Part shown: piece by piece, positions 23,602-62,699 of the stretch | How positions within the stretch are numbered: position 1 is the first letter of the stretch | Layout of the letters: each line of letters opens with the position of its first letter | DNA from: Bacilli bacterium | Lineage (GTDB): Bacteria > Bacillota_I > Bacilli_A > RF39 > UBA660 | Reading direction: 5' to 3' | Assembly (NCBI GenBank): GCA_017473105.1 | Contig: JAFUNE010000010.1 | Coordinates: forward strand, 1 to 64,000 | DNA length: 64,000 nt | Made by a program: the position numbers and the translations under genes | Notes under the pieces: model-generated | The model's database searches: none | What the model saw: the letters and a program-made list of their open reading frames with translations, nothing else | What the model was told of the DNA's origin: nothing

Positions 23602-24168
23602 TTATTTCCTTCTTTCAAGAACATAATCATCTTCATCATAATATCCAACATTTGAACAAAAATTATTTACGTCATTTCTTAAATCTTTGTATTTATTGAG
23701 AACTGATTCACTTTGATCATGTTTTTCCTCATCTTCATTAATAATTTCATAATATTCAGCATCAATAACAGTTTCTTTAGTAGGAACAATAGATAAATCT
23801 AATAAATAATCAAGTTGATTCATAAATCCTCTAATATCTTTAAATTTTTCCATATCATATGTAGTCATAGGTTTTAAAAAATTAGGAATACTTCTGAATT
23901 CTTCAAAAATCTTATTATTAATTTTACGATTTAAATATAAAGAATAGAAAATATTTATACCTGGAAGACATAATATTAAAGAATTTTTAATATTAAAACC
24001 AATATGCTGTATTTTTTCTTTAGCAGAATCTAAAATTCTAACATAATCTTCTTGATTACCACTTTTAACAAAATATCCTTTTCTAGGAAACATCATAATA
24101 ACATCAAACAAATTTTTACATAAAAGTATCATAGAAATAGAAAAAGATAGAAAAATTAAAAATATCAC
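23602..24168 (-). CDS. Array family A membrane protein (copy 1)
   Basis: A 188-residue protein with a GTG start behind AAAGGGGTGG. N-terminal membrane segment (1-28), then FPRKGYFVKSG, a second hydrophobic segment (about 58-72), an LKPMT motif, and a soluble acidic C-terminal part with YKDLRNDVN. It ends YVLERRK. Closely related to the two genes upstream at 24249 and 24901 in layout and sequence. Function unknown. Confidence 0.85.
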   Translation of the reverse strand: MIFLIFLSFSISMILLCKNLFDVIMMFPRKGYFVKSGNQEDYVRILDSAKEKIQHIGFNIKNSLILCLPGINIFYSLYLNRKINNKIFEEFRSIPNFLKPMTTYDMEKFKDIRGFMNQLDYLLDLSIVPTKETVIDAEYYEIINEDEEKHDQSESVLNKYKDLRNDVNNFCSNVGYYDEDDYVLERRK

Positions 24169-24194
24169 AAAAAACCACCCCTTTAGCGACGTAT

Positions 24195-24223
24195 ATTATA
24201 CAATACAAACACCTTTTTGTCAA
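24195..24223 (-). promoter_or_regulatory. Consensus promoter for the 23602 gene
   Basis: Minus-strand TTGACA (24218-24223), 17-bp spacer, TATAAT (24195-24200). Both boxes match consensus fully. Confidence 0.85.
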
Positions 24224-24225
24224 AT

Positions 24226-24249
24226 AAAAAGTACTATAAATAGTACTCT
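24226..24249 (-). terminator. Terminator of the 24249 gene, fused to the next promoter
   Basis: AGTACT-ATAAAT-AGTACT hairpin with a T run on the minus strand running straight into the TTGACA box at 24218-24223. The same cassette recurs at 24847-24901. Confidence 0.65.
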
Positions 24250-24821
24250 TAAAATTTTCTTTTTAAACAAAAATCATTAGATTCATCTTGATTATTAATA
24301 GAAAAGTTCACATCATTAACTTCATCTCTTAATTTTCTATAATCATCAAGAACACTATTTTTTTCATCATTTTGACTATTTTCATCATTATCGTTTATTA
24401 CCTCGTAAGATACCGCATCAATAATAGTTTTTTTAATCCCACCATAAGATAAATCAAATAAATATTCAAATTTATTAGTCATTCCTTTAATCTTCTTAAA
24501 TTCTCTTATTTCATATCCAGTCATAGGTTTTAAAAAATTAGGATAATTAATATATTTCTCAAAAACTTTTTTATTAATTTTATGATTTAAATACAAAGCA
24601 TATAAAACATTAACAACAGGAACCCACAATAATAAATTAAACTTAGTACTTGTACTTATATACTCTTTAGCAGATTCAGTTATTTTATTATAATCTTCAG
24701 GCTTACCGCTTTTAACAAAATACCCTTTCTTTGGAAACATAAAAATAACATCAAAAAAATTATTCCCCATAATACCAATCGAAGACAAAAATGACAAAGT
24801 AAAAAGTAAAAACAATTTCAT
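24249..24821 (-). CDS. Array family A membrane protein (copy 2)
   Basis: A 190-residue protein, taking the ATG at 24821 behind AAAAAGGGGTG; the longer ORF start lies upstream of the promoter -10 box and cannot be used. Hydrophobic N-terminus (1-28), FPKKGYFVKSG, second hydrophobic segment (LLLWVPVVNVLYALYL, about 59-74), LKPMT, then YRKLRDEVN and the end FCLKRKF. It shares the FVKSG and LKPMT blocks with copy 1. Confidence 0.87.
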   Translation of the reverse strand: MKLFLLFTLSFLSSIGIMGNNFFDVIFMFPKKGYFVKSGKPEDYNKITESAKEYISTSTKFNLLLWVPVVNVLYALYLNHKINKKVFEKYINYPNFLKPMTGYEIREFKKIKGMTNKFEYLFDLSYGGIKKTIIDAVSYEVINDNDENSQNDEKNSVLDDYRKLRDEVNDVNFSINNQDESNDFCLKRKF

Positions 24822-24846
24822 ATAAACACCCCTTTTTGTGTTGAAT

Positions 24847-24875
24847 ATTATATTATACAAACACTTATTTGTCAA
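24847..24875 (-). promoter_or_regulatory. Consensus promoter for the 24249 gene
   Basis: Minus-strand TTGACA (24870-24875), 17-bp spacer, TATAAT (24847-24852). Confidence 0.85.
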
Positions 24876-24877
24876 AT

Positions 24878-24901
24878 AAAAAGTACTATAAATAGTACTC
24901 T
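24878..24901 (-). terminator. Terminator of the 24901 gene, fused to the next promoter
   Basis: AGTACT-ATAAAT-AGTACT hairpin and T run, the same as the one at 24226-24249. Confidence 0.65.
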
Positions 24902-25470
24902 TAAAATTTTCTTTTTAAACTAAAATCATCACTATCTTCTAAATTATCTTCACATGAATTTAAAGAATTTACTTCATCTCTTAATTTTCTATATTCATCA
25001 ATAACTTTGTTTTCTTTAACTTCCTCTTGTGTGTCACTTTTACTATCAACAATTTCATAAGTTTCAGTATCAACAACATCAGATTTTGAAACCTCAGCCA
25101 TCAATTTCATATAATAATCTAATTTCAATAAATATTTTTTTCTATTTTTAAATTCTTTTTTTTCTTCATCACTCATTGCTATTAATAAATTGCTTTGATT
25201 TTTACATTCATTAAAAACTTTATTAGCAGCATCATTCATTAACCATGCAGTATAAATCATATTTACAAAAGGAATTAATAACAAAATTGAAGATTTAGCA
25301 GAAAAAGACACATTATTTAATTTTGATTTTTCTTCTTCTAACTTATCTAAATTAATAATAAATCCTTTTTTAGGAAAAATCATCATCATATCAAAAGAAC
25401 CTTTAATAGCAATTCCAATACAACCAACATATGATAATAATGCTCCTAAAATAATTAAAAATATATTCAT
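24901..25470 (-). CDS. Array family A membrane protein (copy 3)
   Basis: A 189-residue protein from the ATG at 25470 behind AAGGGGGATATT; the longest ORF adds 21 residues upstream of the promoter. Membrane segment 1-28, FPKKGFIINLD, second hydrophobic segment with IPFVNMIYTAWL, M-S-D-E-E-K, then YRKLRDEVN and the end FSLKRKF. The most diverged of the three A copies in the middle, but identical in layout. Confidence 0.87.
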   Translation of the reverse strand: MNIFLIILGALLSYVGCIGIAIKGSFDMMMIFPKKGFIINLDKLEEEKSKLNNVSFSAKSSILLLIPFVNMIYTAWLMNDAANKVFNECKNQSNLLIAMSDEEKKEFKNRKKYLLKLDYYMKLMAEVSKSDVVDTETYEIVDSKSDTQEEVKENKVIDEYRKLRDEVNSLNSCEDNLEDSDDFSLKRKF

Positions 25471-25492
25471 AATATCCCCCTTAAGTAGGCAT

Positions 25493-25521
25493 ATTATAAC
25501 AAAAAAATAATAATTTTTCAA
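25493..25521 (-). promoter_or_regulatory. Promoter for the 24901 gene
   Basis: Minus-strand TTGAAA (25516-25521), 17-bp spacer, TATAAT (25493-25498). Confidence 0.8.
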
Positions 25522-25522
25522 T

Positions 25523-25553
25523 AAAAAACACATAATTATATGCGTTTTTTATT
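25523..25553 (-). terminator. Intrinsic terminator of mnmA
   Basis: AAAACGCATA / TATGTGTTTT (one G-U pair) on the minus strand, followed by T residues that merge into the next promoter's -35 area. Confidence 0.6.
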
Positions 25554-27497: not shown

Positions 27498-28292
27498 TTA
27501 TTTTAATCTAAGTTTATGTCCTTCTTCTTTCTCCAATAATTCTAAATCTTCACTAATTAATCTAGACATTTGATCATACCCTGTAGGTGTTAACTTTCTA
27601 GATATTTTAGTATCTCCATATTTAATTTCATAGTTTGCTACATATTGCTTCTCACTATTTTCTTGATTTTTTGCTTTTGGTTCTGTATCTTTAACACTAA
27701 TATTTCTTAAATCCATATTATGTTTATCTTCTATACTATCATGTTGACTTAAAAAAGTATTTCTAATATTATCTTTAATTTGATTTACTGATAAATTACA
27801 TCTTTGAATATTCATATTTTTAAAAGTAATTTCACCAGTTTTAGAATCTAAATTAAATTCAACAAAATAATCATTTTCTTCATTAATTTCAGTATATTTT
27901 CCACTAAATGTAGATTCTAATTTATCAGATATTAATGGAACAAATATAGCAAAAAGACCATTTGGCATATCTAAATACATTTTCTTTTCTTCATCAGTCA
28001 TTTTTCTAAAACATACATGATTACATAATTCAGATAAATTATTTTCATCTACTGCTTTATATTTTCTATCTCTTCTTAAAGTATTTAATATATTAATTAC
28101 TGGTACAAAATTCCAAAAAAATTTATCCATTAATCTTGTTTGATTTTCCTTTGTAAACTCTTCAAATTTTTTAAGATCTAATGTATATCCATTATCAGCT
28201 ATTTTATTAAATAGGCTAAATAAATTTTTAAATTCAATTCCAATACTTAAACAAACTGTAACTATTTCAGTTAATATAACCCCTATTATCAT
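27498..28292 (-). CDS. Array family B membrane protein with KLRLK tail
   Basis: A 264-residue protein. N-terminal membrane segment (1-20), then FNKIADNGYTLDLKKFEEF, a second hydrophobic stretch (FFWNFVPVINILNTL), a KMTDEEKKMYLDMP motif near residues 95-110 and a soluble C-terminal half ending EEGHKLRLK. The block order matches the three B genes upstream. SD is ATAGGGGGAATT. Last gene before a terminator. Confidence 0.87.
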   Translation of the reverse strand: MIIGVILTEIVTVCLSIGIEFKNLFSLFNKIADNGYTLDLKKFEEFTKENQTRLMDKFFWNFVPVINILNTLRRDRKYKAVDENNLSELCNHVCFRKMTDEEKKMYLDMPNGLFAIFVPLISDKLESTFSGKYTEINEENDYFVEFNLDSKTGEITFKNMNIQRCNLSVNQIKDNIRNTFLSQHDSIEDKHNMDLRNISVKDTEPKAKNQENSEKQYVANYEIKYGDTKISRKLTPTGYDQMSRLISEDLELLEKEEGHKLRLK

Positions 28293-28320
28293 AATTCCCC
28301 CTATTTTAAATAAATTTTAT

Positions 28321-28680
28321 TTAACGAAGTTGTAGTTCTAATGAACTTGATTTTACTTCATCAGGAAAAATAAGTTCATCACTATATACTATTTCTTCTA
28401 TTTCATCATCCTTAAAGCCATCATAATAATGTCCACCACAATGCCATATTGTATTCCCTCTACACATAATATCCCATTCAGCACCGTATGTTTTTAAACC
28501 TAGAACAGCAACAGCTGCACATAAAGAGATTTGTTTTTCTTGAGCCATTATAGCCGCTCTTTCATATAAATTTCCTTTTTTAGGATTTATTTTTGCTTTA
28601 AATTCAACTAACTTGTCAATATTATCAATAACTACCCACCAAGCACCATTAACAAAGCAAAATTTCCATTTCTTTTCCAT
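28321..28680 (-). CDS. Unrecognised small protein with LELQLR tail
   Basis: A 119-residue soluble protein with a Trp/Cys-rich middle (AEWDIMCRGNTIWHCGGHYY, about 67-86). It ends SSSLELQLR, a variant of the array tail. It sits between two family B genes with GGAAGG as SD, 3 bp after its upstream neighbour. No family recognised. Confidence 0.8.
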   Translation of the reverse strand: MEKKWKFCFVNGAWWVVIDNIDKLVEFKAKINPKKGNLYERAAIMAQEKQISLCAAVAVLGLKTYGAEWDIMCRGNTIWHCGGHYYDGFKDDEIEEIVYSDELIFPDEVKSSSLELQLR

Positions 28681-28682
28681 TA

Positions 28683-29276
28683 TTAATTACCTTCCTTTTT
28701 TATCGTTAATGTTGGACCTTCTATTTCTTCTTTTAATTCTTTATACTCAAACATTTCTTCTCCATACAAATAACCATTTATTTTTAGTGAATCTCTTAAT
28801 TCTCTATATCTTTCTAATTTCGATAATGGTTTCTTTTCTAGAATAGTTTCTTCATTTGAACTAATTTCATATTTTTTAAGATTAGAATCCTGACTATCAA
28901 ATTTAAATCCTTCTATAAAAATACTTTTTGCATTTCTTCCTGTTGGATTAGCTAAATATTTACTAAATTCTTCATCAGTCATTTTTTTAACTAAATCTTT
29001 CTTACATAATTGTTCAAATAAAAGATCAAACTTTTCATTATAAAAATTTAACTTAAATAATGAATATCCAATGTTTAGAAAAGGAAGATATTTAAATATT
29101 ATATCAAGATTTATAGTAATAACCCCTTCTTCTTTTCTATTAGATTCTTCTCTGTATTTTTCTAAATTTAATTTATATCCCTTATCAGCAATGTATTTAT
29201 AAATATTAAATTCTCCCTTTATATCTATAAAAGTACATACTATCATTGATATAAACCAAGTATCTATAAAATTCAT
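28683..29276 (-). CDS. Array family B membrane protein
   Basis: A 197-residue protein: membrane segment (about 1-16), IYKYIADKGYKLNLEKY, second hydrophobic block IFKYLPFLNIGYSLF, KMTDEEFSKYLANPTG (about 97-112), then YRELRDSLK and a near-terminal GPTLTIKK followed by EGN. The GPxL block matches the GPVLKRK ends of families D and H. SD is GAGGGGGTAC. Confidence 0.87.
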   Translation of the reverse strand: MNFIDTWFISMIVCTFIDIKGEFNIYKYIADKGYKLNLEKYREESNRKEEGVITINLDIIFKYLPFLNIGYSLFKLNFYNEKFDLLFEQLCKKDLVKKMTDEEFSKYLANPTGRNAKSIFIEGFKFDSQDSNLKKYEISSNEETILEKKPLSKLERYRELRDSLKINGYLYGEEMFEYKELKEEIEGPTLTIKKEGN

Positions 29277-29315
29277 TGTACCCCCTCATATCGGCTATAT
29301 ATTATAGCATAAAAA

Positions 29316-30011
29316 TCACTTTAGAACAAGTGTTTGCTCATCATCTGATCTTATATTTAAAACTTCATCTCTATGCGCTAGTAAGATTTCCTTTTTTAAA
29401 GTTGTACTAGATTTCTTTTCTAAAACAACTTTCTTTTTATATAAACACTTAAATATTTTATTTAATTCCTTAATTTGTTCTTCTTCAGTTAAAGAAGCTA
29501 TCTCTCCGGATACAGAAGTAATAACAATTCTATCTTCTTCTTTTCTAAAATTAATATCGTTAAATGTTCCATCATTATTATCTTGTCTATAATTACCATT
29601 TGTGATTTTAATAAACCCACTTGGTTTCATATCATTTCTTTTTTCTTCAATAATTTCTTTATCAAATGAAATATTAAAAGCATTTATTGATTTAGGATTT
29701 TCTAAATACTTTTCAAATTCTTCATCTTCCATTTTAATAAATAAATCCATATGGGTAAGATTATGATATATCTCAGATTTAAATTTATTATATTTTTTTA
29801 ATCTACTTAAACTATATATAAAATTAAAACCTGGAATAAGAAGTAAACAATAAGTCCTAAAACTATCTTTCTTATCAATATATTTCTCTACTTTACTTAA
29901 ATCAACTTTATAACCAAAATTAGCAATTTCTTTAAAAATATCTAATTCATTTGCAGTTTCAATACCTAAACTTACAATAATTGAAATAATCATAAAAATA
30001 ATAATTTCCAT
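29316..30011 (-). CDS. Array family B membrane protein with TLVLK tail
   Basis: A 231-residue protein from the ATG at 30011; a GTG 9 nt upstream is embedded in the SD TAGGTGA. Membrane segment 1-18, IFKEIANFGYKVDLSKVE, hydrophobic LLLIPGFNFIYSL, KMEDEEFEKYLENPKS, and a C-terminal part with a beta-rich middle ending DEQTLVLK. Same block order as the two other full B members. Confidence 0.85.
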   Translation of the reverse strand: MEIIIFMIISIIVSLGIETANELDIFKEIANFGYKVDLSKVEKYIDKKDSFRTYCLLLIPGFNFIYSLSRLKKYNKFKSEIYHNLTHMDLFIKMEDEEFEKYLENPKSINAFNISFDKEIIEEKRNDMKPSGFIKITNGNYRQDNNDGTFNDINFRKEEDRIVITSVSGEIASLTEEEQIKELNKIFKCLYKKKVVLEKKSSTTLKKEILLAHRDEVLNIRSDDEQTLVLK

Positions 30012-30030
30012 AAAATTCACCTATATAATA

Positions 30031-30816
30031 TTATTCAAGTCTTAATGATTTATTATTATCATCTCTATATGGATCGTCAAATATTTCTCTATCTCTTGAA
30101 ACTTGATTTCTTAATTTTTCATATTTTTCTTTAACAGATATTGATTCTTTTTCTTTTTCCTTATTCTTAGCTTCATCATCATGTTCTAGGTTTATAACAA
30201 TACTCTTTTTCCCATCTAAACTTTTAGCAAATTCTTCAACATTACCATAAATGCCTTCAATTTTCTTGAAAAAATCACTCATGATAGCACATAATAATTC
30301 TTTTTGTTTTTCTTCACTATATCTAGAATAAAAACCTTCAGTTTTAACAATTCTTAAATCTCCATTTTCAAAAATACAATAAAATTCAGTGGTAGTATTT
30401 CCATCATTTATTGTAAATTTAAACGATTTTTTTAAGTATTCTTCATATTTTCTACTTACTTGAATAAAATTCATTAAAGTAGGATTCTTTTGATATTCAG
30501 TTTTTTCAAAATCTTCCATCTCTTCAATAGCACCAAGACTCTTTAAATACATAAATATCATATCTTTATTATTTTCATATTTTTTAACAAAATTTAAAGC
30601 AAAAAATAAATTATAAATTGGAATGAACATAGATAAAAGACTTAATCTTGAAGCATTATTAACTTCATTTGGCATATTATTATTAATATTATCTACATCT
30701 TTAGTATTAATTTTATATCCCTCATCTGCAAATTCTTTTATCATTTTAAACACTTGATTAAATACAGTATAAACACTAACTATAGTGCTAGCACTCCATA
30801 TCATTAAAAAATTCAT
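30031..30816 (-). CDS. Array family B membrane protein with KSLRLE tail
   Basis: A 261-residue protein: hydrophobic N-terminus, MIKEFADEGYKINTKDVDN, second hydrophobic block (SMFIPIYNLFFALNF), a diverged EMEDFEKTEYQKNPT block, a beta-rich domain with a Glu-Lys stretch, then YEKLRNQVSRD and the end NNKSLRLE. The closing Glu replaces the usual Lys or Arg. SD is AGGAGGG. Confidence 0.85.
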   Translation of the reverse strand: MNFLMIWSASTIVSVYTVFNQVFKMIKEFADEGYKINTKDVDNINNNMPNEVNNASRLSLLSMFIPIYNLFFALNFVKKYENNKDMIFMYLKSLGAIEEMEDFEKTEYQKNPTLMNFIQVSRKYEEYLKKSFKFTINDGNTTTEFYCIFENGDLRIVKTEGFYSRYSEEKQKELLCAIMSDFFKKIEGIYGNVEEFAKSLDGKKSIVINLEHDDEAKNKEKEKESISVKEKYEKLRNQVSRDREIFDDPYRDDNNKSLRLE

Positions 30817-30826
30817 AAAAACCCTC

Positions 30827-32558: not shown

Positions 32559-32634
32559 TGGTGCTCCGATAGGGATTCGAACCCTAGACCCACCGATTAA
32601 GAGTCGGTTGCTCTACCAGCTGAGCTATCAGAGC
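32559..32634 (-). tRNA. tRNA-Lys (anticodon CTT)
   Basis: A 76-nt cloverleaf including the encoded CCA at 32559-32561. Acceptor GCTCTGA / TCGGAGC with discriminator A; D arm GCTCAGCTGGTAGAGC; anticodon stem ACCGA / TCGGT with loop CTCTTAA (anticodon CTT); T arm with GGTTCGAATCC. It reads AAG codons, rare in these AT-rich genes. A hairpin with the leader is possible at the 5' end (32631-32650). Confidence 0.95.
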
Positions 32635-32732
32635 AAATTTCGATTTGCTCATTAAGTATAGCATAAAAAATATAAAAAATAAATACCTAAAATCATATTT
32701 TTTTAAAGAAATTGAAAGAAAATAAAGAAAAA

Positions 32733-32763: not shown

Positions 32764-32774
32764 AAATAAAAAAA

Positions 32775-51108: not shown

Positions 51109-51114
51109 AATATC

Positions 51115-52392: not shown

Positions 52393-52400
52393 CAAAACCC

Positions 52401-53618: not shown

Positions 53619-53631
53619 ATTTTCCCCCTAC

Positions 53632-54162: not shown

Positions 54163-54171
54163 CTCATACAC

Positions 54172-54825: not shown

Positions 54826-54833
54826 TTTATATC

Positions 54834-55505
54834 CTACTTTCTTTTAAGTTCTAAAGGTTTATCTTCAGTTTCCTCTAAATAATCTGCATATATATGTCTA
54901 AACGTATCAGCATATAATCTAGATAAACTATATTCTAAATCTTTTATTTCCTTTTTTAAAATATCTATTTCAGCTTCACATTCTTGATATCTCATAACAG
55001 CATTATTAAACTTATTAAGTTTTTCTTTAAAATCCTTATCAAGAATTTCATATTCAGAAGTTATCTTCTTAAACATTTCACTTTCAGAAAATTCCTTACT
55101 ATATTTAACTACATTACGAAATAATACAGAATCAAATAAATTTAAAAGCAATCCCCCTCCAGCAGCAATTAATAAAGTCCCTATTTTAGATGCAAATAAA
55201 GCACTTAATTGAGGAAATAAACTAACTATTAATACAAATCCACTTCCAATAAGAAAAACCTTTAAATTATGCTTAAATTCCCTATCAGAAATATATTCTT
55301 TTTTAGCATCATACATTTCAAATCTTTTCTCATTAAGCTTTTTCTCAGCTAAACATAATTCCTCTTTAACTCCATCCATACTCAAATCAAGTTCATCATA
55401 CTCTTCTACTTTAGATTCAAACAATTTTTCTTTTTCTTTCAATTTGACATTTAATTCACTGTATTGTTTTAATACAGGAGCCTCATAACTTTCACGTTCT
55501 ACCAT
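54834..55505 (-). CDS. Array family C coiled-coil/membrane-hairpin protein
   Basis: A 223-residue protein: coiled coil (about 10-75), hydrophobic hairpin (about 83-128) with SGFVLIVSLF and TLLIAAGGGLLLNLF, coiled coil (about 135-205), acidic linker and the end KPLELKRK. SD GGAGGG. Starts 18 bp after the family I gene. Confidence 0.84.
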   Translation of the reverse strand: MVERESYEAPVLKQYSELNVKLKEKEKLFESKVEEYDELDLSMDGVKEELCLAEKKLNEKRFEMYDAKKEYISDREFKHNLKVFLIGSGFVLIVSLFPQLSALFASKIGTLLIAAGGGLLLNLFDSVLFRNVVKYSKEFSESEMFKKITSEYEILDKDFKEKLNKFNNAVMRYQECEAEIDILKKEIKDLEYSLSRLYADTFRHIYADYLEETEDKPLELKRK

Positions 55506-55522
55506 AAACCCTCCAATAAAAA

Positions 55523-56152
55523 TTAACGTTTTTTACTTCTAATTAAATTCATAACTCTATCACTACTAGAAAAATCAGAAAAATAAATTTCACTCGGACA
55601 ATACTTATCAAAATTAACATAACATAAACTATTTAAATCATTATCCGTTGACTTAATAAAATTACCAAATATTGTTCCAATTAATTCATAATTATAACAA
55701 ACATATTTATAAATTATTCCCTTATAAATATCATCCTCAAAATTTACTTTAGAAGAAGTAGCAACAAAATTACCAACATACTCTCTTTTAACATCATGAA
55801 CAAGTGCCGGAAACAACATATTTAAATTTAAATGAAACTCTTCTTCATGCAAAACATGTTCCTTACCATCATTTTTATTTGTATAATTTTTATATCTTAA
55901 TACTTTTAACATTAAAGTACTATTAACTATATCAATTGAATATTTATAATCAAAATTACCATTTTTAAAATATCTATTAGAATAATTATTAATATCAAAA
56001 AATCCATGTTTTTTATCTTCTAAAGCACGTCTTACATCATAAACAATCTCTTTAGGAATAGTTCTAATAAAATATGCAATGTCACTTCTCTTATCAGTAT
56101 TTCCAACAATCATAGCCCAAAGTGATCTATCAATGTCTTTATCAAATATCAT
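55523..56152 (-). CDS. Array family I soluble protein (copy 2)
   Basis: A 209-residue protein starting MIFDKDIDRSLWAMIVGN. Blocks shared with the 57763 gene: LWAM, YFI(R/K)T(I/L)PKEI, KYHYEID-type strand, EEF/EEYYxLNMxFPAL, (E)YVGxF and ICYVNF/INFDKRxPEEIYxSDFxSxDRVxNLIxSxKR. It ends NLIRSKKR. First gene after its own promoter. Confidence 0.85.
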   Translation of the reverse strand: MIFDKDIDRSLWAMIVGNTDKRSDIAYFIRTIPKEIVYDVRRALEDKKHGFFDINNYSNRYFKNGNFDYKYSIDIVNSTLMLKVLRYKNYTNKNDGKEHVLHEEEFHLNLNMLFPALVHDVKREYVGNFVATSSKVNFEDDIYKGIIYKYVCYNYELIGTIFGNFIKSTDNDLNSLCYVNFDKYCPSEIYFSDFSSSDRVMNLIRSKKR

Positions 56153-56192
56153 AACCCCTCCTAAAAATAGTTATACATACAAATGTGTGTAT

Positions 56193-56221
56193 ATTATACA
56201 ATATAAAACAAGTTTTTTCAA
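56193..56221 (-). promoter_or_regulatory. Promoter for the 55523-48784 unit
   Basis: Minus-strand TTGAAA (56216-56221), 17-bp spacer, TATAAT (56193-56198). Confidence 0.8.
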
Positions 56222-56250
56222 TAAAAAATAGCAGTAAATACCGCTATTAT
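56221..56250 (-). terminator. Intrinsic terminator of the 61571-56252 unit
   Basis: AATAGCGG-TATTTA-CTGCTATT imperfect stem and T run on the minus strand, directly followed by the -35 box of the next promoter. Confidence 0.65.
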
Positions 56251-56251
56251 T

Positions 56252-57052
56252 TTATATTTTCATACTTAATACATGATGAGTACCAAAATCTTCAATAGAA
56301 ATGCCTAATTCTTCATTATTAGAAATATTAAATAATTTAGAAATCACATCATTTTCAATAGTTTTCATTTGACAATTAATTACTCTCATTCTATCTTCAT
56401 ATTTTTCTATAATTTTATTTCTATTACTTAGTTCACTTTTAATTTTATTATATTCTTTTTCTTTAACATCCCTTAAAAGCTCTTTATCATAAATAGAAGA
56501 ACTAATATTTTTAAATTCATCAGTTTCTTTAAATACATTTTCGTATTTATTTATAATTTTTTGAAAAAAAGGATATGTAACTAAAATACCAGTAACAGTA
56601 ATACTAACTGGTAACCCAATTAAATATTGAATAAAATCAGAAAAATTACTAACAGCTGGATTCCCTATAATCTTATTCAAAAGTACAAAACCAAAAGGAA
56701 CAAAAACACAAGATGAAACAACTTTAGCTAAGAAAATTTTAATTTTAGAATTAATAAATTTTGTTTTAGATTGTTTCAAAACATTTTCAAGTTCCCAAAT
56801 TTCTTGATTAAAATTACTCAATTCATTACCAACAATTTCAAATTTTTTTGCATCATCATGTTGTAATTCATATAAAGGTTTTACATCATTTTTAATTTTT
56901 TGTAAATTTTCTAATAAGACACTATATTTACCTTGCATATCATTAAGAAATTTTTCTCTTTCTTCTTTATCTTCACTTACAAATACTTTCCCCTCTGCAC
57001 GAGGAACATCTTCTACACAAATATCAGAATATTTTTCAACATCATTAGTCAT
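56252..57052 (-). CDS. Array family C coiled-coil/membrane-hairpin protein
   Basis: A 266-residue protein from the ATG at 57052, nine nt inside the longest (GTG) ORF. Acidic N-terminal 40 residues, coiled coil (about 35-95), hydrophobic hairpin (about 100-150), coiled coil (about 160-230), ending HHVLSMKI. Last gene of its unit. The tail is a weak variant. Confidence 0.82.
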   Translation of the reverse strand: MTNDVEKYSDICVEDVPRAEGKVFVSEDKEEREKFLNDMQGKYSVLLENLQKIKNDVKPLYELQHDDAKKFEIVGNELSNFNQEIWELENVLKQSKTKFINSKIKIFLAKVVSSCVFVPFGFVLLNKIIGNPAVSNFSDFIQYLIGLPVSITVTGILVTYPFFQKIINKYENVFKETDEFKNISSSIYDKELLRDVKEKEYNKIKSELSNRNKIIEKYEDRMRVINCQMKTIENDVISKLFNISNNEELGISIEDFGTHHVLSMKI

Positions 57053-57061
57053 ATAACACAC

Positions 57062-57766
57062 CTACTTCTTTAAATTTAAAACAAAATCAGATTCTATTTT
57101 ATCTTCATCAACAGAACAAATTACATCAAATATAGAACTTTTTATATTGTCCATTTCACATTTATTACTTCGAATTCTATACTCAAGTTGTTCTATATGA
57201 TATTTACATTCTTTTAAAGCTTTTTTCTTTTCTTCAAAAACAATATTTTTCTCACTAAAAACTTTTCTTTTTTCTTCAATGTCATCTAATAATTTTTTAC
57301 TGTCTTCCAAATTATAAAATTTCTTTAAAAATTTTCTTCTTGTTTTATCAGAAAAAAAACTAGATACAATTACTGATAAAGTACCACCAAGTAACGGACT
57401 ACATAAAAAATAATTCAAAACATCTTTAAACGAAAGTATATCTATAACCCCCGCTAAAGTAGCACCTAAACTTACTGCATTTAAAATACCAAAAACTTTT
57501 AATATAATCAAAAATATATATTTAATTTCAGCTTTATTAACATATTCAACTTTACTATTATCAAAGTTACATCTATTTATAGAATAAATTTTATTAGCGC
57601 TATCTAATTGACTTTTAGCTTCTTCATATTCCTCTTGTTTTTTATCTCTTTCAATTTTTAATACTGCAAGTTCATTTTCAAGTAAATTGTTTTTTAAACT
57701 AAATTCATGATATTCATTTTGTTTTTGTTCAATAAATTGTTTTTGTTTTTCAGTTAAATCTTTCAT
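57062..57766 (-). CDS. Array family C coiled-coil/membrane-hairpin protein
   Basis: A 234-residue protein starting MKDLTEKQKQFIEQKQ, coiled coil (1-70), hairpin (about 80-128) with LSFKDVLNYFLCSPLLGG, coiled coil (about 150-210) and the end DFVLNLKK. Nearly colinear with the 58436 protein, including the CSPLLGG/CAPLFGG block. The two are recent duplicates. Confidence 0.87.
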   Translation of the reverse strand: MKDLTEKQKQFIEQKQNEYHEFSLKNNLLENELAVLKIERDKKQEEYEEAKSQLDSANKIYSINRCNFDNSKVEYVNKAEIKYIFLIILKVFGILNAVSLGATLAGVIDILSFKDVLNYFLCSPLLGGTLSVIVSSFFSDKTRRKFLKKFYNLEDSKKLLDDIEEKRKVFSEKNIVFEEKKKALKECKYHIEQLEYRIRSNKCEMDNIKSSIFDVICSVDEDKIESDFVLNLKK

Positions 57767-58401
57767 ATTTTTCTCACCCTCTTATTACTTTTAATTAAAT
57801 TTATTACTCTATCATCACTTTCAAAATCAGATTTATATATTTCTTCAGGCATTCTTTTATCAAAATTAATTTTTGAATCAAAAATTTCATTTCCGGTTTT
57901 ACATCTTATAAGATTACCAAAAGACGAACCAATCAAATGATAATTCCCATTAACAGATTCATATTCAATTCCCTTATATTCACCGCTTTCAAAAACATGA
58001 TTTGATATTAAAGATGCAAAACTACCAATATATTCAGAATCAGCGACATGTCCACAAAATGGTAAATAAAACATATTCAATGTTAAACAATAATATTCTT
58101 CATTTTTAACATGCTCAGTAGAATCATTTCTATTTAAATATGTATGAAATCTATGAACTTTTAAAACCAAATTATCATTAAAAATATCAATCTCATAATG
58201 ATATTTAAGAACAGGAAATACATCAAAATCTTTTCTTATTGGTTCAAATGTATTATGAGCTTGTTTATTAATTGATATAATAACATCCTCTATAATTTCC
58301 TTTGGTAATGTCTTAATAAAATAAACTAAATCTTTTCTATTGGCACTATAACTACTAAGCATAGCCCAAAGTGCTTTATCTAAATTATATCCAAATAACA
58401 T
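57763..58401 (-). CDS. Array family I soluble protein (copy 1)
   Basis: A 212-residue protein from the ATG at 58401 behind TAGGAGGT. Paralogue of the 55523 gene: LDKALWAML, YFIKTLPKEI, EEYYCLTLNMFYLPF, INFDKRMPEEIY, SDFESDDRVINLIKSNKR. Ends KSNKRVRKI. It overlaps the next gene (57062) by 4 bp. Confidence 0.85.
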   Translation of the reverse strand: MLFGYNLDKALWAMLSSYSANRKDLVYFIKTLPKEIIEDVIISINKQAHNTFEPIRKDFDVFPVLKYHYEIDIFNDNLVLKVHRFHTYLNRNDSTEHVKNEEYYCLTLNMFYLPFCGHVADSEYIGSFASLISNHVFESGEYKGIEYESVNGNYHLIGSSFGNLIRCKTGNEIFDSKINFDKRMPEEIYKSDFESDDRVINLIKSNKRVRKI

Positions 58402-58435
58402 AAAACCTCCTAAAAACAATTATTCATAAATACAT

Positions 58436-59140
58436 CTACTTTCTTAAATTTAAACTCAAATTAGAATCAAGTTCTTCATCAATAGTAGAATAAATTATAT
58501 CAAAAATGGAATTTTTAATTTTTTCCATTTCATATTTACTACACCTTATTTTATATTCCAATTCTTCCATACGACATTTACAATCTTGATAATTTGTTTT
58601 CTTTTCTTCATAAACTTTCTTCTTTTCAAGTGAATTTTGTTCATTCTTTTCCAATGTTTCAAGTAAACTCTTTGTTTCATCAAGTTCATAAAATCTTTTA
58701 ATAATTTTCTTTCTTATATTATCAGAGAAAAAACCAGCTCCAAGCAAAATCATAGCACCACCAAATAATGGAGCACAAAAAAAGTTACTAATTACATCTT
58801 TAAATGAGACTATATCAATAAATCCAAGCAATGAAATAATTACATTAATTGATGCAAAAAACATAAAAGATTTAAATAAAAGAGTAAAAACATAACGAAA
58901 TTCTTGCTTATTAACATATTCATTTTTTTTAATATCAAACCCAAAATTATTACTTGTTAAAATGCCTTCAACTTTTATATATTCACCTTTAGCTTTTTCA
59001 TATTCACTTAATTTTTCACTTTTTTCACTACTTAATTCAGCAAGTTCATTTTCTAATAATATTACTTTATTACTAAAACAATGATAATCTTTTTGTTTTT
59101 GAGAAATTAATTCTTTTTGCTCTTCTGTTAAGTCCTTCAT
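58436..59140 (-). CDS. Array family C coiled-coil/membrane-hairpin protein
   Basis: A 234-residue protein starting MKDLTEEQKELISQKQ; coiled coil, hairpin (about 80-128) with VSFKDVISNFFCAPLFGG, coiled coil, ending SNLSLNLRK. Duplicate of the 57062 gene. Its ATG overlaps the TGA of the 59137 gene (ATGA), and its first 15 residues resemble those of that gene. Confidence 0.87.
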   Translation of the reverse strand: MKDLTEEQKELISQKQKDYHCFSNKVILLENELAELSSEKSEKLSEYEKAKGEYIKVEGILTSNNFGFDIKKNEYVNKQEFRYVFTLLFKSFMFFASINVIISLLGFIDIVSFKDVISNFFCAPLFGGAMILLGAGFFSDNIRKKIIKRFYELDETKSLLETLEKNEQNSLEKKKVYEEKKTNYQDCKCRMEELEYKIRCSKYEMEKIKNSIFDIIYSTIDEELDSNLSLNLRK

Positions 59141-59700
59141 ATAACTCGCTTCTTTCTATTTAATGTTTTTTCTTCAATTAAAACATTAATATCTCTTATT
59201 TTAAAAGGATAAGTTAGCCCTAAACGATAAACACCTCTAAATTCACCATAAGGCTTTATCATACAACTATACCTGCATCCACCAGTTTCTTCTTCATATC
59301 CTTCATACATAAAATAACGAGGATCTTCTTCATCCACAACAAATAATTCAGCATGATTTACTAAATATGGTAGCACAATCTCCGCATATAAAACAATATC
59401 ACCAGTTTCAAGTCTTTTATACAAATCTATTTTATAATACTCACTAGGTCTATCTTCAGGTATATCTTCCCCAATAACAAGAGATAAAGTATCATCTTTA
59501 ACGTTTCTCATTTTTTTTAATTTTTCAGAATCCTCATTTGACAAACAAAAACTTTCAACAAACCCGTTCTCTACAGTACGATTCACTAAATTACATAAAT
59601 CATTTTCTTGAACCAAAGCACCCGTTTCAAGGTCTACAGGTTCGCTAAGCGGAATATCATGACTAATCAAATCTTTAAATTCTTCTGTAAAATCTTTCAT
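59137..59700 (-). CDS. Unrecognised protein with a family C-like N-terminus
   Basis: A 187-residue soluble protein. It starts MKDFTEEFKDLISHD, similar to the downstream family C proteins, but the rest is unrelated: beta-rich, with ETGGCRYSCMIKPYGEFRGVYR near the end. It ends LNRKKRVI, basic without the L-x-L spacing. SD AAGTAGGTG. Confidence 0.78.
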   Translation of the reverse strand: MKDFTEEFKDLISHDIPLSEPVDLETGALVQENDLCNLVNRTVENGFVESFCLSNEDSEKLKKMRNVKDDTLSLVIGEDIPEDRPSEYYKIDLYKRLETGDIVLYAEIVLPYLVNHAELFVVDEEDPRYFMYEGYEEETGGCRYSCMIKPYGEFRGVYRLGLTYPFKIRDINVLIEEKTLNRKKRVI

Positions 59701-59708
59701 ACTAGCAC

Positions 59709-60200
59709 CTACTTCTTTAAAATTGTACCATTTTCTATTCTTTCTCTTGCAGAATCTAATGAAGGTCTTTGATTAGTTAAATAAAACATACTACAAATAT
59801 TATCTATATAATCATTAGTTAATAAACTCATAGCTTCTTCTTTAGTTATTTCTTTTTTATCAGTATTCATAATACCCAAGGCTTCAGAAGGAATATAAAA
59901 AGGAAAACCAAATAATATTTCTATATATTCAAATTTACCATATTCACTTTCCATAACAACAAAGTATTCAGGAATATTCATTGCTTTTAAAGATAAATCT
60001 GATATTTTATCATTTCTTTTAAACTTAAAATTAAGACTTTGTAAATCATCAGATCTTTTCATTAATTGAGGATATCTAGCTCTATAAAATTCATCCAATC
60101 TAAAAACATTTTTAATATGAGCCGGTTTATTATAATCTCGTTTAAAACCATACATATCAAGAGAACACAAATTTTTTAAGTCAATTTTATATATTTTCAT
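59709..60200 (-). CDS. Unrecognised protein with GTILKK tail
   Basis: A 163-residue soluble protein, start behind TAGGTGGG. Mixed alpha/beta with FVVMESEYGKFEYIEILFGFP in the middle and a helical end containing RPSLDSARERIENGTILKK. No family recognised. Confidence 0.8.
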   Translation of the reverse strand: MKIYKIDLKNLCSLDMYGFKRDYNKPAHIKNVFRLDEFYRARYPQLMKRSDDLQSLNFKFKRNDKISDLSLKAMNIPEYFVVMESEYGKFEYIEILFGFPFYIPSEALGIMNTDKKEITKEEAMSLLTNDYIDNICSMFYLTNQRPSLDSARERIENGTILKK

Positions 60201-60207
60201 AACCCAC

Positions 60208-61020
60208 CTATTTTTTTAAATTTAATCCTTTTTCTTTAATATTTAATTTTTCACATATTTCATCTACTAAAATTGATAAATCAACATTATCATTTTTAGA
60301 TTCTTTTACATAACCAAAATTTTTTTTATCAATTTCCAAACCTTTTTCACTTAGCATTAATGAAATAATATGATATAGTTCATGTTCAACATTATCAATT
60401 AACTCTCTATCGCTACCAGTATATGATATAACATCAACAGGAAAAGGTCTCTTATCATATTTAATAAACTCTAAAATACAACTCTCGATCATAGAAATAT
60501 GCTTATTTAAATATTGATGAAGACCAACAACAGGAATTCCAAGTGTAGTAAACTCACGAACTTTTAAAAAATATTCTTTGATTTTATAATCTAAATATTT
60601 TATATAAGAAAGCATTTTTATTTGATCATAACTAAAATCATGAAAAGCTTCTTTACCATTTACATATAATATAGAAGAGTGACCATGATTAACCTCTCTA
60701 ACCTCAACCATATCAGCAATATCAGAAATATTTTTAAAAGATAATTCATCAAATGGATATACAAATCTATCGCTTTTATATCTATAATTCTTGTCATATA
60801 TATTAGCTAAATCACATGCAATACCATAAGAGTATTCAGGTAATGCTGCATGAATTCCAATAACATCGAATTTATCATTAAAGATAACCCTTATACCATT
60901 ATTAATCAAAGTAACAACAATAGTATCACCAATTTTATCAATAAACCCACTTTGTAAACCAAATTTTCTACAATTTTCATTAAACTTAGCATTATTTAAA
61001 GTTTCATCTTTATTAATCAT
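60208..61020 (-). CDS. Unrecognised protein with HELYH motif and LNLKK tail
   Basis: A 270-residue soluble protein. Residues 213-217 are HELYH, a zinc-binding HExxH pattern in a helix (DNVEHELYHIISLML), which could indicate a metallopeptidase, but no third ligand is clear and five residues can match by chance. It ends EKGLNLKK. SD AAGGTAGGT. Confidence 0.75.
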   Translation of the reverse strand: MINKDETLNNAKFNENCRKFGLQSGFIDKIGDTIVVTLINNGIRVIFNDKFDVIGIHAALPEYSYGIACDLANIYDKNYRYKSDRFVYPFDELSFKNISDIADMVEVREVNHGHSSILYVNGKEAFHDFSYDQIKMLSYIKYLDYKIKEYFLKVREFTTLGIPVVGLHQYLNKHISMIESCILEFIKYDKRPFPVDVISYTGSDRELIDNVEHELYHIISLMLSEKGLEIDKKNFGYVKESKNDNVDLSILVDEICEKLNIKEKGLNLKK

Positions 61021-61026
61021 ATTTAC

Positions 61027-61554
61027 CTACCTTTGTAATTTAAGTTGAACTTTGTCACCTTGTACTACTAAATCAGAATCATATTGAACTAACTTTTGAA
61101 ATTCAACTTCTGTATATATATTTCCTTGATAAAATCTAACATAAGAATCTACAAACTTCTCAGGATTACTAACTATTTCATTTATCATTTCTTTTGTCAT
61201 TCTAACTTTAGGATATTCATCTTCAATAACACAATTTCTTCTTTTAATTTCAAGTTCTAAAATAGCATCATTAACTTCAGGTATAAAATCTCTTATTTCA
61301 TAAAGAAAAGTAAGTTCATTTCTACCAGTTGCTTTATAATATATTTGACTACATAAATCTATAAGTTCTTTTTTATAATCAGAAGTTACAAATATTGTAT
61401 TACCATTCTCTCCAGGTTTACTTACATATCTATGTCTTCCTTGAATTCTTTCTTTTTGAAATTCATCATCTATTTTTCCAATTCCTGCTATCATTTTTAA
61501 GTCAGCAATCATATCAGTATAATAAAAATAATCTTTTTTATCTAAATTTTCCAT
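61027..61554 (-). CDS. Unrecognised protein with VQLKLQR tail
   Basis: A 175-residue soluble, largely helical protein with SD GGAGGT. A basic Gly-rich loop (RIQGRHRYVSKPGENGN, about 36-52) precedes a helical core. It ends DKVQLKLQR. No family recognised. Confidence 0.8.
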   Translation of the reverse strand: MENLDKKDYFYYTDMIADLKMIAGIGKIDDEFQKERIQGRHRYVSKPGENGNTIFVTSDYKKELIDLCSQIYYKATGRNELTFLYEIRDFIPEVNDAILELEIKRRNCVIEDEYPKVRMTKEMINEIVSNPEKFVDSYVRFYQGNIYTEVEFQKLVQYDSDLVVQGDKVQLKLQR

Positions 61555-61570
61555 AAAAACCTCCTATAAA

Positions 61571-61819
61571 TTATTTTTTCATTTTTCTAACTAAAGGATA
61601 TTCTTCCCTAAAATCATTATCACCTAAATAAAGTTCTCCTGGTGTTTGAAATCTATCCCTATTAGTTCGAACTGAAAAACTATGTGACGTATTATAAACA
61701 AACTTTCTTTTCGTTTTATCATTTCTTCCTCTAATTGGACTATGATCAGAAGAAGTTTTTCTTTCCTTTTGATTCATTAATTTTTCATCTCCTAATAAGA
61801 ATTTTAAAAATGTAGTCAT
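61571..61819 (-). CDS. Small basic protein with RKMKK tail
   Basis: An 82-residue protein from the ATG at 61819 behind TTGGAGGG; the longest ORF starts at the TTG inside that SD. Short hydrophobic start (MTTFLKFLLG), then a very basic polar stretch and the end LVRKMKK. First gene of the 61571-56252 unit. Confidence 0.75.
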   Translation of the reverse strand: MTTFLKFLLGDEKLMNQKERKTSSDHSPIRGRNDKTKRKFVYNTSHSFSVRTNRDRFQTPGELYLGDNDFREEYPLVRKMKK

Positions 61820-61842
61820 TATTCCCTCCAAAATGTGTTTAT

Positions 61843-61871
61843 ATTATATAGTATAATTTATAAAAAAACAA
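61843..61871 (-). promoter_or_regulatory. Promoter for the 61571-56252 unit
   Basis: Minus-strand TTGTTT (61866-61871), 17-bp spacer, TATAAT (61843-61848). Confidence 0.65.
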
Positions 61872-61900
61872 TAAAAAACATTGGATAAACCAATGTTAAT
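61872..61900 (-). terminator. Intrinsic terminator of the 61896 gene
   Basis: AACATTGG-TTTAT-CCAATGTT with a T run on the minus strand. Confidence 0.8.
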
Positions 61901-62699
61901 TTTTCTTTCTTCTTAAATATATATTTCCAGATGAATCATCTAACTTATATCTGCCCAAAGAAGTTGGTTCAAAACTACCTTCTAATGCTATATAAGGTAT
62001 CATCTCAACATTATTAAAATATGATTCTATTAATTCTCTATGATAATCAGAAAAATCACTAGCAGGAAATTCTAAATCAGTAATCATTTTAAAGTAATCA
62101 TGTGTCATTTTACTAAAATCTTTGCCTTCACTTCTTGAGCCAGCAATTTTCACCTCATCTTTTCTTCCTTTATATTCAATCATAAAATCTGGAGTTCTCA
62201 AATTAAATTCATAAGCTTTTGGTACTATTTTTGCTCCTGGAATTTCACTACCATTAACAGCTTTAATAATATGATTAATAGAAAGATTTTTAGCACTTTC
62301 ACTATTTAATATTTCATTTGCAAGTTCCATAAATTCCTCACGTGACTCATACATTGGAAAAATTGCAAATTCATCTTTCTTTATAGCGTCACGTCCATTT
62401 ATTCTTCTTGGAAAAAAATTACCATTATTATCTCTAAGCATAACTGTTCTTGTTGGTTTATGATATGCAAATAAATGATACATCAAAGCTGCAAAAGTCT
62501 TAGGATAATGTTCTTTTCTACATTTATCTGCAACAAGTTCAGGTAACTCCTTAGAATATATATCTTTAAATAAATTATAGTAATAATCATCTTTTCCATA
62601 AACAACTGAAAGTTCTCTTAATCTATCTAATTTTTCATTTAAAATTAATTGTTCTTGTCTTAATGCATTTAAAATAATATCGTATCTATATGTTTCCAT
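61896..62699 (-). CDS. Unrecognised protein with YLRRKKN tail
   Basis: A 267-residue soluble protein, start behind AGGAGGT. Helical N-terminal half with CRKEHYPKTFAALMYHLFAY, a strand-rich middle, and a C-terminal part with GRYKLDDSSGNIYLRRKKN. The end has the array pattern plus Asn. Single-gene unit next to the deacetylase. Confidence 0.8.
   Translation of the reverse strand: METYRYDIILNALRQEQLILNEKLDRLRELSVVYGKDDYYYNLFKDIYSKELPELVADKCRKEHYPKTFAALMYHLFAYHKPTRTVMLRDNNGNFFPRRINGRDAIKKDEFAIFPMYESREEFMELANEILNSESAKNLSINHIIKAVNGSEIPGAKIVPKAYEFNLRTPDFMIEYKGRKDEVKIAGSRSEGKDFSKMTHDYFKMITDLEFPASDFSDYHRELIESYFNNVEMIPYIALEGSFEPTSLGRYKLDDSSGNIYLRRKKN

What the first reader, a model, noticed from the sequence alone, without database searches (positions are those of the whole stretch)
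23602..62699. A shared C-terminal tail on most proteins of a 39-kb array of unrelated genes
Roughly 35 of about 55 minus-strand proteins end with hydrophobic-x-Leu-(Lys/Arg)-(Lys/Arg/x), often after an acidic or Gly/Pro residue. Examples by gene end: 24249 FCLKRKF, 24901 FSLKRKF, 27498 KLRLK, 29316 TLVLK, 30827 SLSLK, 35682 YTLKKKN, 37026 ELKLNK, 39903 LSLRK, 41092 LGLRK, 41470 PKLRIKM, 46318 LLLKK, 54172 SLSLKK, 54834 LELKRK, 57062 LNLKK, 58436 LNLRK, 60208 LNLKK, 61027 LKLQR. Carriers differ in length and fold, soluble or membrane-hairpin. A tail shared by non-homologous proteins suggests one reader: a secretion, compartment-loading or anchoring machine. A purely DNA-level cause (SD or terminator bases inside the last codons) is unlikely as the full answer, because the tail persists in genes that end a transcription unit (39903, 48784, 37819, 27498) and the Leu spacing is kept.
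Basis: partly seen in the sequence, partly recalled or inferred. Interest (0 to 1): 0.92.

Follow-up and report, generated by a model that had tools for sequence, protein, structure and literature searches.

The report
Shared protein tail across unrelated genes
In an uncultured bacterium, some three dozen uncharacterised proteins from about twenty unrelated families, encoded close together on the chromosome, end in the same kind of short flexible peptide, which is conserved by selection and looks like a docking tag for a partner that nobody has identified.

Summary
The tail is an acidic spacer, often Gly/Pro, then Leu, then Lys/Arg. It does not depend on a close downstream gene: 29 of 39 against 8 of 11. 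Most of the array is a 30.1-kb island between a polysaccharide deacetylase gene and tRNA-Lys, which lie 75-89 bp apart in 5 of 7 relatives checked. One carrier family, of membrane proteins, occurs in 30 of 193 related genomes; in 20 of its loci 16 proteins keep the tail against 4.6 shuffled. A motif learned from 29 such loci also fits the unrelated array proteins better than 300 of 300 column permutations. Best reading: a lineage-specific C-terminal docking tag, partner unknown. Encapsulin loading and WXG100 secretion are not supported, an FtsZ-tail mimic only weakly, and the universal C-terminal Lys/Arg bias explains part. No reader, location or function is established.

The parts
32635..62763 (-). 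30.1-kb lineage-specific island between the polysaccharide deacetylase gene and tRNA-Lys; 42 chosen ORFs, all on this strand, 29 with the looser tail
32559..32634 (-). tRNA-Lys(CTT), downstream border of the island
62764..63954 (-). polysaccharide deacetylase, upstream border, no tail
   Evidence: PdaB-type match (member inferred)
27498..31765 (-). second carrier cluster between tRNA-Lys/NUDIX and spoIIM (27498 HKLRLK, 28321 LELQLR, 28683 GPTLTIKKEGN, 29316 TLVLK, 30031 SLRLE, 30827 SLSLK)
23602..25533 (-). third carrier cluster beyond mnmA (23602 YVLERRK, 24249 FCLKRKF, 24901 FSLKRKF), same membrane family as 27498/28683/29316/30031
35682..36155 (-). carrier, tail SSYTLKKKN
37026..37697 (-). 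carrier, coiled-coil/TM-hairpin family, tail IELKLNK
37819..38325 (-). carrier, tail DILKKK (next gene 121 nt away)
38338..39048 (-). carrier, tail VISLIKK
39159..39830 (-). carrier by the looser pattern, tail GRVLNR; coiled-coil-like
39903..40400 (-). carrier, small TM-hairpin family, tail KLSLRK
40397..41083 (-). carrier, tail DMCLRRNL
41092..41454 (-). carrier, tail GLGLRK
41470..41922 (-). carrier, tail DGPKLRIKM
41931..42437 (-). carrier-like (missed by the looser pattern), tail KGPSLRFKKN
42430..43143 (-). carrier, tail NNMVLRSV
43153..43674 (-). carrier, tail AKLRIVK
43687..44196 (-). carrier, tail CPKLIKK (PKLIKK also lies near the end of an unrelated membrane protein of another genome, L134)
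45224..45544 (-). carrier, tail SLLLKK
45541..45822 (-). carrier-like (missed by the looser pattern), tail FPRLSFRK
45831..46307 (-). carrier, tail SGPVLKRKF
46318..46776 (-). carrier, tail NLLLKK
48472..48687 (-). short ORF, carrier by the looser pattern only, tail VKRLIK
48784..49800 (-). carrier with a predicted TM segment, tail FQPKLRK
49807..51108 (-). carrier, soluble family, tail DGPVLKRK; modelled, tail unordered
51115..52395 (-). carrier, same soluble family, tail EGPVLKRK
52401..53618 (-). carrier, joined to the same soluble family by alignment, tail SSMMLRK
53632..54171 (-). carrier, tail MLLKK
54172..54825 (-). carrier, coiled-coil/TM-hairpin family, tail VSLSLKK
54834..55505 (-). 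carrier, same family, tail PLELKRK
56252..57061 (-). carrier-like (missed by the looser pattern), same family, tail VLSMKI
57062..57766 (-). carrier, same family, tail VLNLKK
58436..59140 (-). carrier, same family, tail LSLNLRK; modelled as long helices with an unordered tail
59709..60200 (-). carrier, tail GTILKK
60208..61020 (-). carrier, tail GLNLKK
61027..61554 (-). carrier, tail VQLKLQR
61571..61831 (-). carrier-like (missed by the looser pattern), tail PLVRKMKK
61896..62699 (-). carrier, tail IYLRRKKN
2464..3093 (-). isolated carrier outside the array, one predicted TM segment, tail GLRLGLKRK

Best explanation
The tail is a C-terminal short linear docking tag: an acidic spacer, then a core of about [G/P]-P-x-[L/hydrophobic]-x-[K/R]-[K/R] (in many proteins L-x-L-[K/R]-[K/R]), placed at the free end of many unrelated proteins so that one cytoplasmic partner can collect them. 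Shown: the tag is real, is shared by non-homologous families, is conserved where the spacer next to it varies, is modelled as unordered in the two proteins folded, and is kept by one carrier family across related genomes. Inferred: that a single partner reads it, that the carriers' ends lie in the cytoplasm, and that the carriers work together, plausibly at the membrane, because at least three carrier families have predicted membrane segments. The partner is not identified.
For: Enrichment 23 of 55 against 2.1; 14.7 of 30 families against 1.3. Ordered acid, G/P, Leu, Lys/Arg profile. Independent of downstream gene distance. Of six homologues of 49807 at 55-72% body identity, five keep 88% of the last 8 residues, four of these with 25-58% of the spacer (the fifth keeps the spacer whole); one lost the tail (7 of the 14 other rows of the alignment compared). 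In 20 loci of the membrane family 16 keep hydrophobic-x?-[KR][KR] in the last 12; shuffled 4.6, maximum 12 of 5000; a same-strand ORF was seen within 30 nt downstream in 2 of 20. A motif learned from 29 such loci scores 1.69 on 43 array proteins outside that family against 0.07 shuffled (maximum 1.34 of 100), 0 of 300 column permutations as good, -1.99 on the 25 other window ORFs. Tail below pLDDT 50 in both models.
Against: No reader found, so the shared partner is inference. The core is loose; Pro-containing tails and L-x-L tails may be two classes. 13 of 50 array proteins miss the looser pattern, about eight of them clearly. With the learned motif only 8 of 43 array proteins score 5 or more, and 41 of 600 ORFs of relatives do too. 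Relatives: G007 50 of 1091 against 30.1 shuffled, maximum 49; G002 6 of 201 against 4.6 and G001 13 of 279 against 8.2; G005 16 of 369 against 10.2. P0009 lost its tail. Part of the Lys/Arg excess is universal (PMC7246954).
Confidence: 0.5

Rival explanations
1. Expression or stability tail: Lys/Arg ends raise protein level by slowing degradation, and the array proteins were selected for that, with no specific partner.
For: Lys 2.32x and Arg 1.76x at the last position over 1,582 genomes; C-terminal Lys raises and hydrophobic residues lower expression in Mycoplasma pneumoniae (PMC7246954, abstract and section 7 read). Relatives here show K/R 2.5x and the other window ORFs 3.2x at -1.
Against: The bias does not predict Leu 3.5-4.3x at -5..-3, G/P at -8..-6 or the acidic spacer, nor the recurrence of GPVLKxK-type strings in unrelated proteins.
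Confidence: 0.2
2. [quoted passage not shown]
For: Similar layout: 20 of 20 FtsZ proteins read from related genomes end with P-x-F-[L/I]-R-x-[R/K] after a mostly acidic stretch. SepF is in 19 of 22 and FtsZ in 21 of 22 genomes. A P-x-h-x?-KK end search gave 25 of 3340 unique ORFs (9.7 shuffled, maximum 20), 3 of them FtsZ and 7 the membrane carrier family; the pool was enriched in both because loci had been fetched for them.
Against: An FtsZ-tail matrix scores the array only modestly (mean -9.2, shuffled -11.4, none at 4 or more) and 14 of 200 column permutations do as well. Most tails lack the I/L-P-x-F-L-R core. SepF was not found in 2 of the 10 carrier-family genomes of the set.
Confidence: 0.08
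3. Secretion or compartment-loading signal (encapsulin-like shell or a type VII-like secretion machine).
For: Encapsulin targeting peptides are also short, C-terminal and have LKR near the end (consensus SDGSLGIGSLKRS in PMC8346489, passages read). WXG100 proteins occur in 7 of 22 related genomes, 3 of 22 over the curated cut-off.
Against: PF04454 in 0 of 22 genomes; an L.[IVL]..L[KR] end in 1 of 80 chosen window ORFs. WXG100 in 2 of the 10 genomes of the set in which the membrane carrier family was found. Only 5 of 37 carriers have a hydrophobic segment starting in the first 20 residues; no signal-peptide program was run.
Confidence: 0.08
4. Degron: the tail is a C-terminal recognition site for an ATP-dependent protease.
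For: Short, unordered, extreme C-terminal, shared by unrelated proteins; some known protease tags are basic (recalled, no call).
Against: C-terminal Lys raises expression in Mycoplasma pneumoniae (PMC7246954, abstract); nothing on proteases was tested here.
Confidence: 0.07
5. DNA-level cause: ribosome-binding bases of the next gene, terminators, or a repeated gene-junction cassette produce the last codons.
For: TAG stop in 19 of 37 carriers against 3 of 25 ORFs outside; long identical junctions in two paralogue pairs (45 and 30 nt); AAG and AGG over-used in tails.
Against: Tail equally frequent with and without a close downstream gene (29 of 39, 8 of 11); apart from those two pairs shared junction strings are at most 17 nt. 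Tail Leu codons follow roughly the usual mix. Homologues without a close downstream ORF keep it.
Confidence: 0.05

Closest known systems
Encapsulin family 1 targeting (cargo-loading) peptides
   Same: Short C-terminal peptide on non-homologous proteins, Leu-rich, with Lys/Arg near the end (PMC8346489, passages read)
   Different: Different core; no PF04454 shell in 22 related genomes; far more carriers, several with predicted membrane segments
FtsZ conserved C-terminal peptide, bound by FtsA and others
   Same: Disordered linker, then a short Pro/hydrophobic/basic end with several binders (PMC5832921, passages read; FtsZ tails)
   Different: Matrix test not convincing; most tails lack the P-x-F-L-R core
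Universal C-terminal Lys/Arg bias of bacterial proteins
   Same: Lys/Arg at -1 and -2
   Different: No Leu, Gly/Pro or acidic component (PMC7246954, abstract and section 7 read)
C-terminal tip of single-stranded-DNA-binding protein
   Same: Flexible acidic tail with a hydrophobic end used as a docking site (recalled, not tested)
   Different: There one protein has many partners; here many proteins would share one partner, and the end is basic

Membership tests
Encapsulin cargo system | HK97-fold shell gene in the genome | tested here: not met
   PF04454 in 0 of 22 related genomes, control rings in 3 of 14 named genomes. The window's own genome is not held and other encapsulin families were not searched
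Encapsulin cargo system | Targeting peptide like SDGSLGIGSLKRS | tested here: not met
   L.[IVL]..L[KR] in the last 16 in 1 of 80 chosen window ORFs
FtsZ-tail-type docking peptide | Match to the FtsZ C-terminal peptide of related genomes | tested here: inconclusive
   Above shuffles, but 14 of 200 column permutations reach it and no array ORF scores 4 or more
FtsZ-tail-type docking peptide | Binding to FtsA or SepF | not testable with these tools
   SepF found in 19 of 22 genomes; FtsA was not searched; binding needs an experiment
Type VII secretion substrate | WXG100 partner genes in the genome | tested here: inconclusive
   7 of 22 genomes at E<=0.001, 3 of 22 over cut-off; 2 of the 10 in which the membrane carrier family was found
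Universal C-terminal Lys/Arg bias | Only Lys/Arg enriched, in the genome at large | tested here: not met
   Acid, Gly/Pro and Leu enriched too in 50 array proteins and not in 1142 ORFs of relatives; weak Leu excess in the 25 other window ORFs
Shared C-terminal docking tag on non-homologous proteins (general kind) | Tail shared beyond homology and conserved more than its spacer | tested here: met
Shared C-terminal docking tag on non-homologous proteins (general kind) | A dedicated reader protein | not tested
   No candidate identified

The most novel reading that the evidence does not exclude
A previously undescribed addressing system of one family of uncultured Bacilli: a lineage-specific machine, perhaps membrane-bound and built partly from coiled-coil hairpin proteins, gathers dozens of fast-evolving unrelated proteins through one C-terminal tag, and new proteins join it by evolving the tag, which lets the island grow.
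Probability: 0.3. Interest if true: 0.85.

Novelty: new variant of a known kind. Interest (0 to 1): 0.6.

Why it matters
The array proteins are dark: scanned singly, 6 of 50 have any PHROG match at E<=0.01, the best (39159, 2.5e-8) to a family of unknown function, and of 20 scanned singly against Pfam none reaches a curated cut-off. A shared tag is one of few handles on such genes: it predicts that they belong together and gives a direct bait, the tail peptide, to find the partner. If true, it would show how a small bacterium recruits many new proteins into one process by a short, easily evolved peptide.

Tried and rejected
A census in the window's own genome was impossible: none is held. Soluble family 49807/51115/52401: no match in 12 and in 193 related genomes, none confirmed in viral contigs, none in phages. 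Coiled-coil family: two weak partial matches in 145 genomes. Fold searches gave no usable match: 49807 best Foldseek E 1.0e-3 at TM 0.16; 58436 best E 2.8e-2, mostly coiled coils and helical hairpins including pore-forming ones. Profile searches of PDB sequences: best E 0.87 (membrane family) and 0.18 (49807 family). Defence-system models: four weak matches, best E 1.3e-4, over 60 proteins. A gene-junction cassette was considered and dropped: apart from two paralogue pairs no shared junction string exceeds 17 nt. The longest string shared by the two border regions of the island in the same direction is 12 nt, AT-rich. No integrase or transposase name appears in the family lists that were shown (60 of 80 chosen ORFs scanned; 25 of 31 Pfam, 21 of 21 PHROG and 25 of 36 NCBIfam families listed), so the mode of insertion is unknown. 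FtsZ mimicry was tested and left as a weak rival. In print: the searches returned 0 papers; one search listed 10 of 45 papers on RF39, of which I read passages of one (PMC10868615). led to PMC7246954, to PMC8346489, to PMC5832921; the other listed papers were seen as listings only.

ORFs are mechanical calls of at least 60 aa, picked by hand in the window (80 of 108 listed) and by a greedy rule elsewhere, so some starts and genes may be wrong. The pool and the relatives' pool still held loci fetched because of the carrier family. The motif finder placed several of the 29 training sites poorly. In one search the fetched stretch showed no same-strand ORF downstream for 9 of 20 loci, so a neighbour may lie beyond.


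Full report
What the window is. The window is about 24% G+C and carries ordinary bacterial genes: mnmA (homologues), spoIIM (member inferred), tRNA-Lys and, by eye from the sequences, xerD- and deoB-like genes. Its mnmA protein is 89% identical to that of a MAG called 'bacterium isolate SUG1194' (L001) and 82-85% to six MAGs labelled Bacilli, Tenericutes, Erysipelotrichaceae or Clostridia. I think of the group as the order RF39; that is recalled, no call names it. PMC10868615 (passages read) describes most RF39 species as walled and predicts that the order can form spores. No genome is held for the window itself.

The observation. The listed tails are there. With a looser end pattern 37 of 50 match after five host-type genes are dropped; of the 13 misses five still look like variants by eye. 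All-against-all comparison, with 52401 joined by alignment, groups 51 array ORFs into 30 families; weighting families equally, 14.7 of 30 match the end-anchored pattern against 1.3 shuffled, maximum 6 of 3000, and 22 of 30 families have at least one member with the looser tail. So paralogy is not the reason.

Shape of the tail. Over the last 14 positions of 50 proteins there is an order: acidic residues at -12 to -8, Gly/Pro at -8 to -6, Leu at -5 to -3, Lys/Arg at -3 to -1. In 1142 ORFs of four related genomes only Lys/Arg rises towards the end; the 25 other window ORFs show a weak Leu excess as well, perhaps because a few of them look like carriers (2464). In the two AlphaFold models the tail is below pLDDT 50: residues 420-433 of 49807 (15 sequences, mean pLDDT 74.1) and 223-234 of 58436 (6 sequences, mean 83.6). 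The second is modelled as long helices whose two predicted membrane segments lie in the middle, which I read as an antiparallel coiled coil with a membrane tip.

Protein or DNA? Leu codons in tails follow roughly the usual mix. There is a DNA-level side: TAG stops in 19 of 37 carriers against 3 of 25 ORFs outside, and AAG and AGG over-used, which I read as overlap with the next ribosome-binding site. Homologues show selection on the protein. Of the seven closest rows aligned to 49807, P0002 is nearly identical throughout; five at 55-72% body identity keep 88% of the last eight residues, four of those with 25-58% of the spacer; P0010 keeps the spacer whole, which looks like recombination; P0009 lost the tail. 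Homologues of the coiled-coil family keep ends such as MSLNLRK, ISLSLKM, TLSLKI or VLSMKI (7 of 9); P0048 and P0049 end differently and may be cut. Homologues of 29316 keep ends such as KLRLK, KLSLK and KLILK, with exceptions such as P0028 and P0037.

Beyond this organism. The membrane family 23602/24249/24901/27498/28683/29316/30031 has matches in 21 of 145 genomes of the family of G002 and, with a better model, in 30 of 193 genomes of the family of G001. In a draw of 296 genomes from the class 7 match, and all 7 are among those 30, so the family looks restricted to that group. Of the 20 proteins in the first loci, 16 have hydrophobic-x?-[KR][KR] in the last 12, against 4.6 shuffled (maximum 12 of 5000) and 2.0 in internal windows (maximum 8); a same-strand ORF within 30 nt downstream was seen in 2 of 20. 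One search printed 12 further loci; nine hold a full-length homologue not used before, and by eye 7 of these 9 have the tail (L262 and L272 do not), while L251, L271 and L273 were set aside as short, cut or not the matching ORF. Tails include EEGPTLIKRKK, QQGPVLKK and QQGPKLIKK, strings that recur in unrelated array proteins (SGPVLKRKF, EGPVLKRK, CPKLIKK). A position matrix learned only from 29 such loci scores 1.69 on the 43 array proteins outside that family, against 0.07 shuffled (sd 0.46, maximum 1.34 of 100) and -1.35 for internal windows, and none of 300 column permutations reaches it (maximum 1.19). The 25 other window ORFs score -1.99 and a sample of 600 of 3303 ORFs of relatives -1.15, with no excess over shuffling (-1.09). 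Per protein the matrix is weak: 8 of 43 array proteins and 41 of 600 relatives' ORFs score 5 or more.

How common is the tail in relatives? In about 84% of G007, 50 of 1091 ORFs match the end pattern against 30.1 shuffled (maximum 49 of 300). In samples, G002 has 6 of 201 against 4.6, G001 13 of 279 against 8.2, G005 16 of 369 against 10.2. Ends of the kind acid, then [TKSV]-L-x?-[KR][KR], occur in 54 of 3340 unique ORFs of all held loci against 14.9 shuffled (maximum 24 of 200), a pool that includes the carrier-family loci. So the motif exists in relatives, thinly spread; no array of this size was met in the parts fetched.

The island. In L001, L002, L003, L004 and L007 the deacetylase gene and tRNA-Lys(CTT) are 75-89 bp apart; of the seven relatives checked, L006 has one ORF between them and L005 has another arrangement. 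In the window 30,129 bp lie between them, with 42 chosen ORFs on the same strand, 29 with the looser tail. The upstream side of tRNA-Lys is conserved with L001. Two smaller carrier clusters sit at 27498-31765 and 23602-25533. One island gene, 33641 (probably the PRK06922-type methyltransferase), has its homologues in G007 and G005 in a stretch with a nadD-like gene (by eye), so the island also holds a gene of host type; it lacks the tail.

What reads it? Encapsulin shells (PF04454) were found in 0 of 22 related genomes. WXG100 is found in 7 of 22, but in 2 of the 10 of that set in which the membrane family was found (ten of the other twelve were not searched for that family). FtsZ is in 21 of 22 and SepF in 19 of 22, and FtsZ tails have a similar layout. 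Yet an FtsZ-tail matrix is matched by 14 of 200 column permutations and no array ORF scores 4 or more. I keep this as a lead only. The universal C-terminal Lys/Arg bias (PMC7246954: abstract and section 7 read) explains the last two positions in part, not the Leu, Gly/Pro and acidic parts.

Verdict. This is a real, conserved, protein-level C-terminal motif on unrelated proteins, concentrated in a lineage-specific island. A docking tag with one reader is the best explanation at about 0.5, because nothing here shows a reader, a location or a binding.

Noticed in passing
32635-62763: 30.1-kb insertion between two genes that are adjacent in five of seven relatives checked, with no integrase seen in the lists shown and no long direct repeat at its borders; how it arrived is unexplained.
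   Followed up: partly
carrier genes in 23602-62699: TAG stops are over-represented in carriers (19 of 37 against 3 of 25 outside), probably tied to ribosome-binding sites that begin right after the stop.
   Followed up: partly
P0008/P0004, P0010, P0031-P0036 (homologues of 49807 and 29316): Homologues look like mosaics: stretches or 3' ends nearly identical while the rest differs much more, which suggests recombination among these genes.
   Followed up: no
33641-35659: Large SAM-methyltransferase-like protein inside the island; its homologues in G007 (L163) and G005 (L202) lie in a stretch with a nadD-like gene.
   Followed up: partly
L114:8246-9367 and L221:18804-19850: A DHH-phosphoesterase-like protein (family recalled from the sequence, not scanned) in two relatives ends in VSLKLKK and LSLKKSI, a possible carrier with a recognisable fold.
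   Followed up: no
L240:8454-17795: In G007 a short run of unknown genes starts with a protein that resembles the membrane family by eye and holds several tail-like ends (MSLKK, SILRLK, VSLTKKQ).
   Followed up: no
166-1083 and 60208-61020: HExxH-like stretches (HEMIH, HELYH) hint at metallopeptidases among otherwise unknown proteins.
   Followed up: no
20288-20386: A 12-bp-based tandem repeat inside a small ORF (20217-20414) beside two proteins with Ig-like and NlpC/P60-type matches (members inferred).
   Followed up: no
G001, G002, G005, G006, G007: Close relatives hold WXG100-like genes (over the cut-off in G005 and G007 only), so a type VII-like system may exist in this lineage.
   Followed up: no
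39159-39830: The only array protein with a clear PHROG match: family 21066, unknown function, E 2.5e-8.
   Followed up: no
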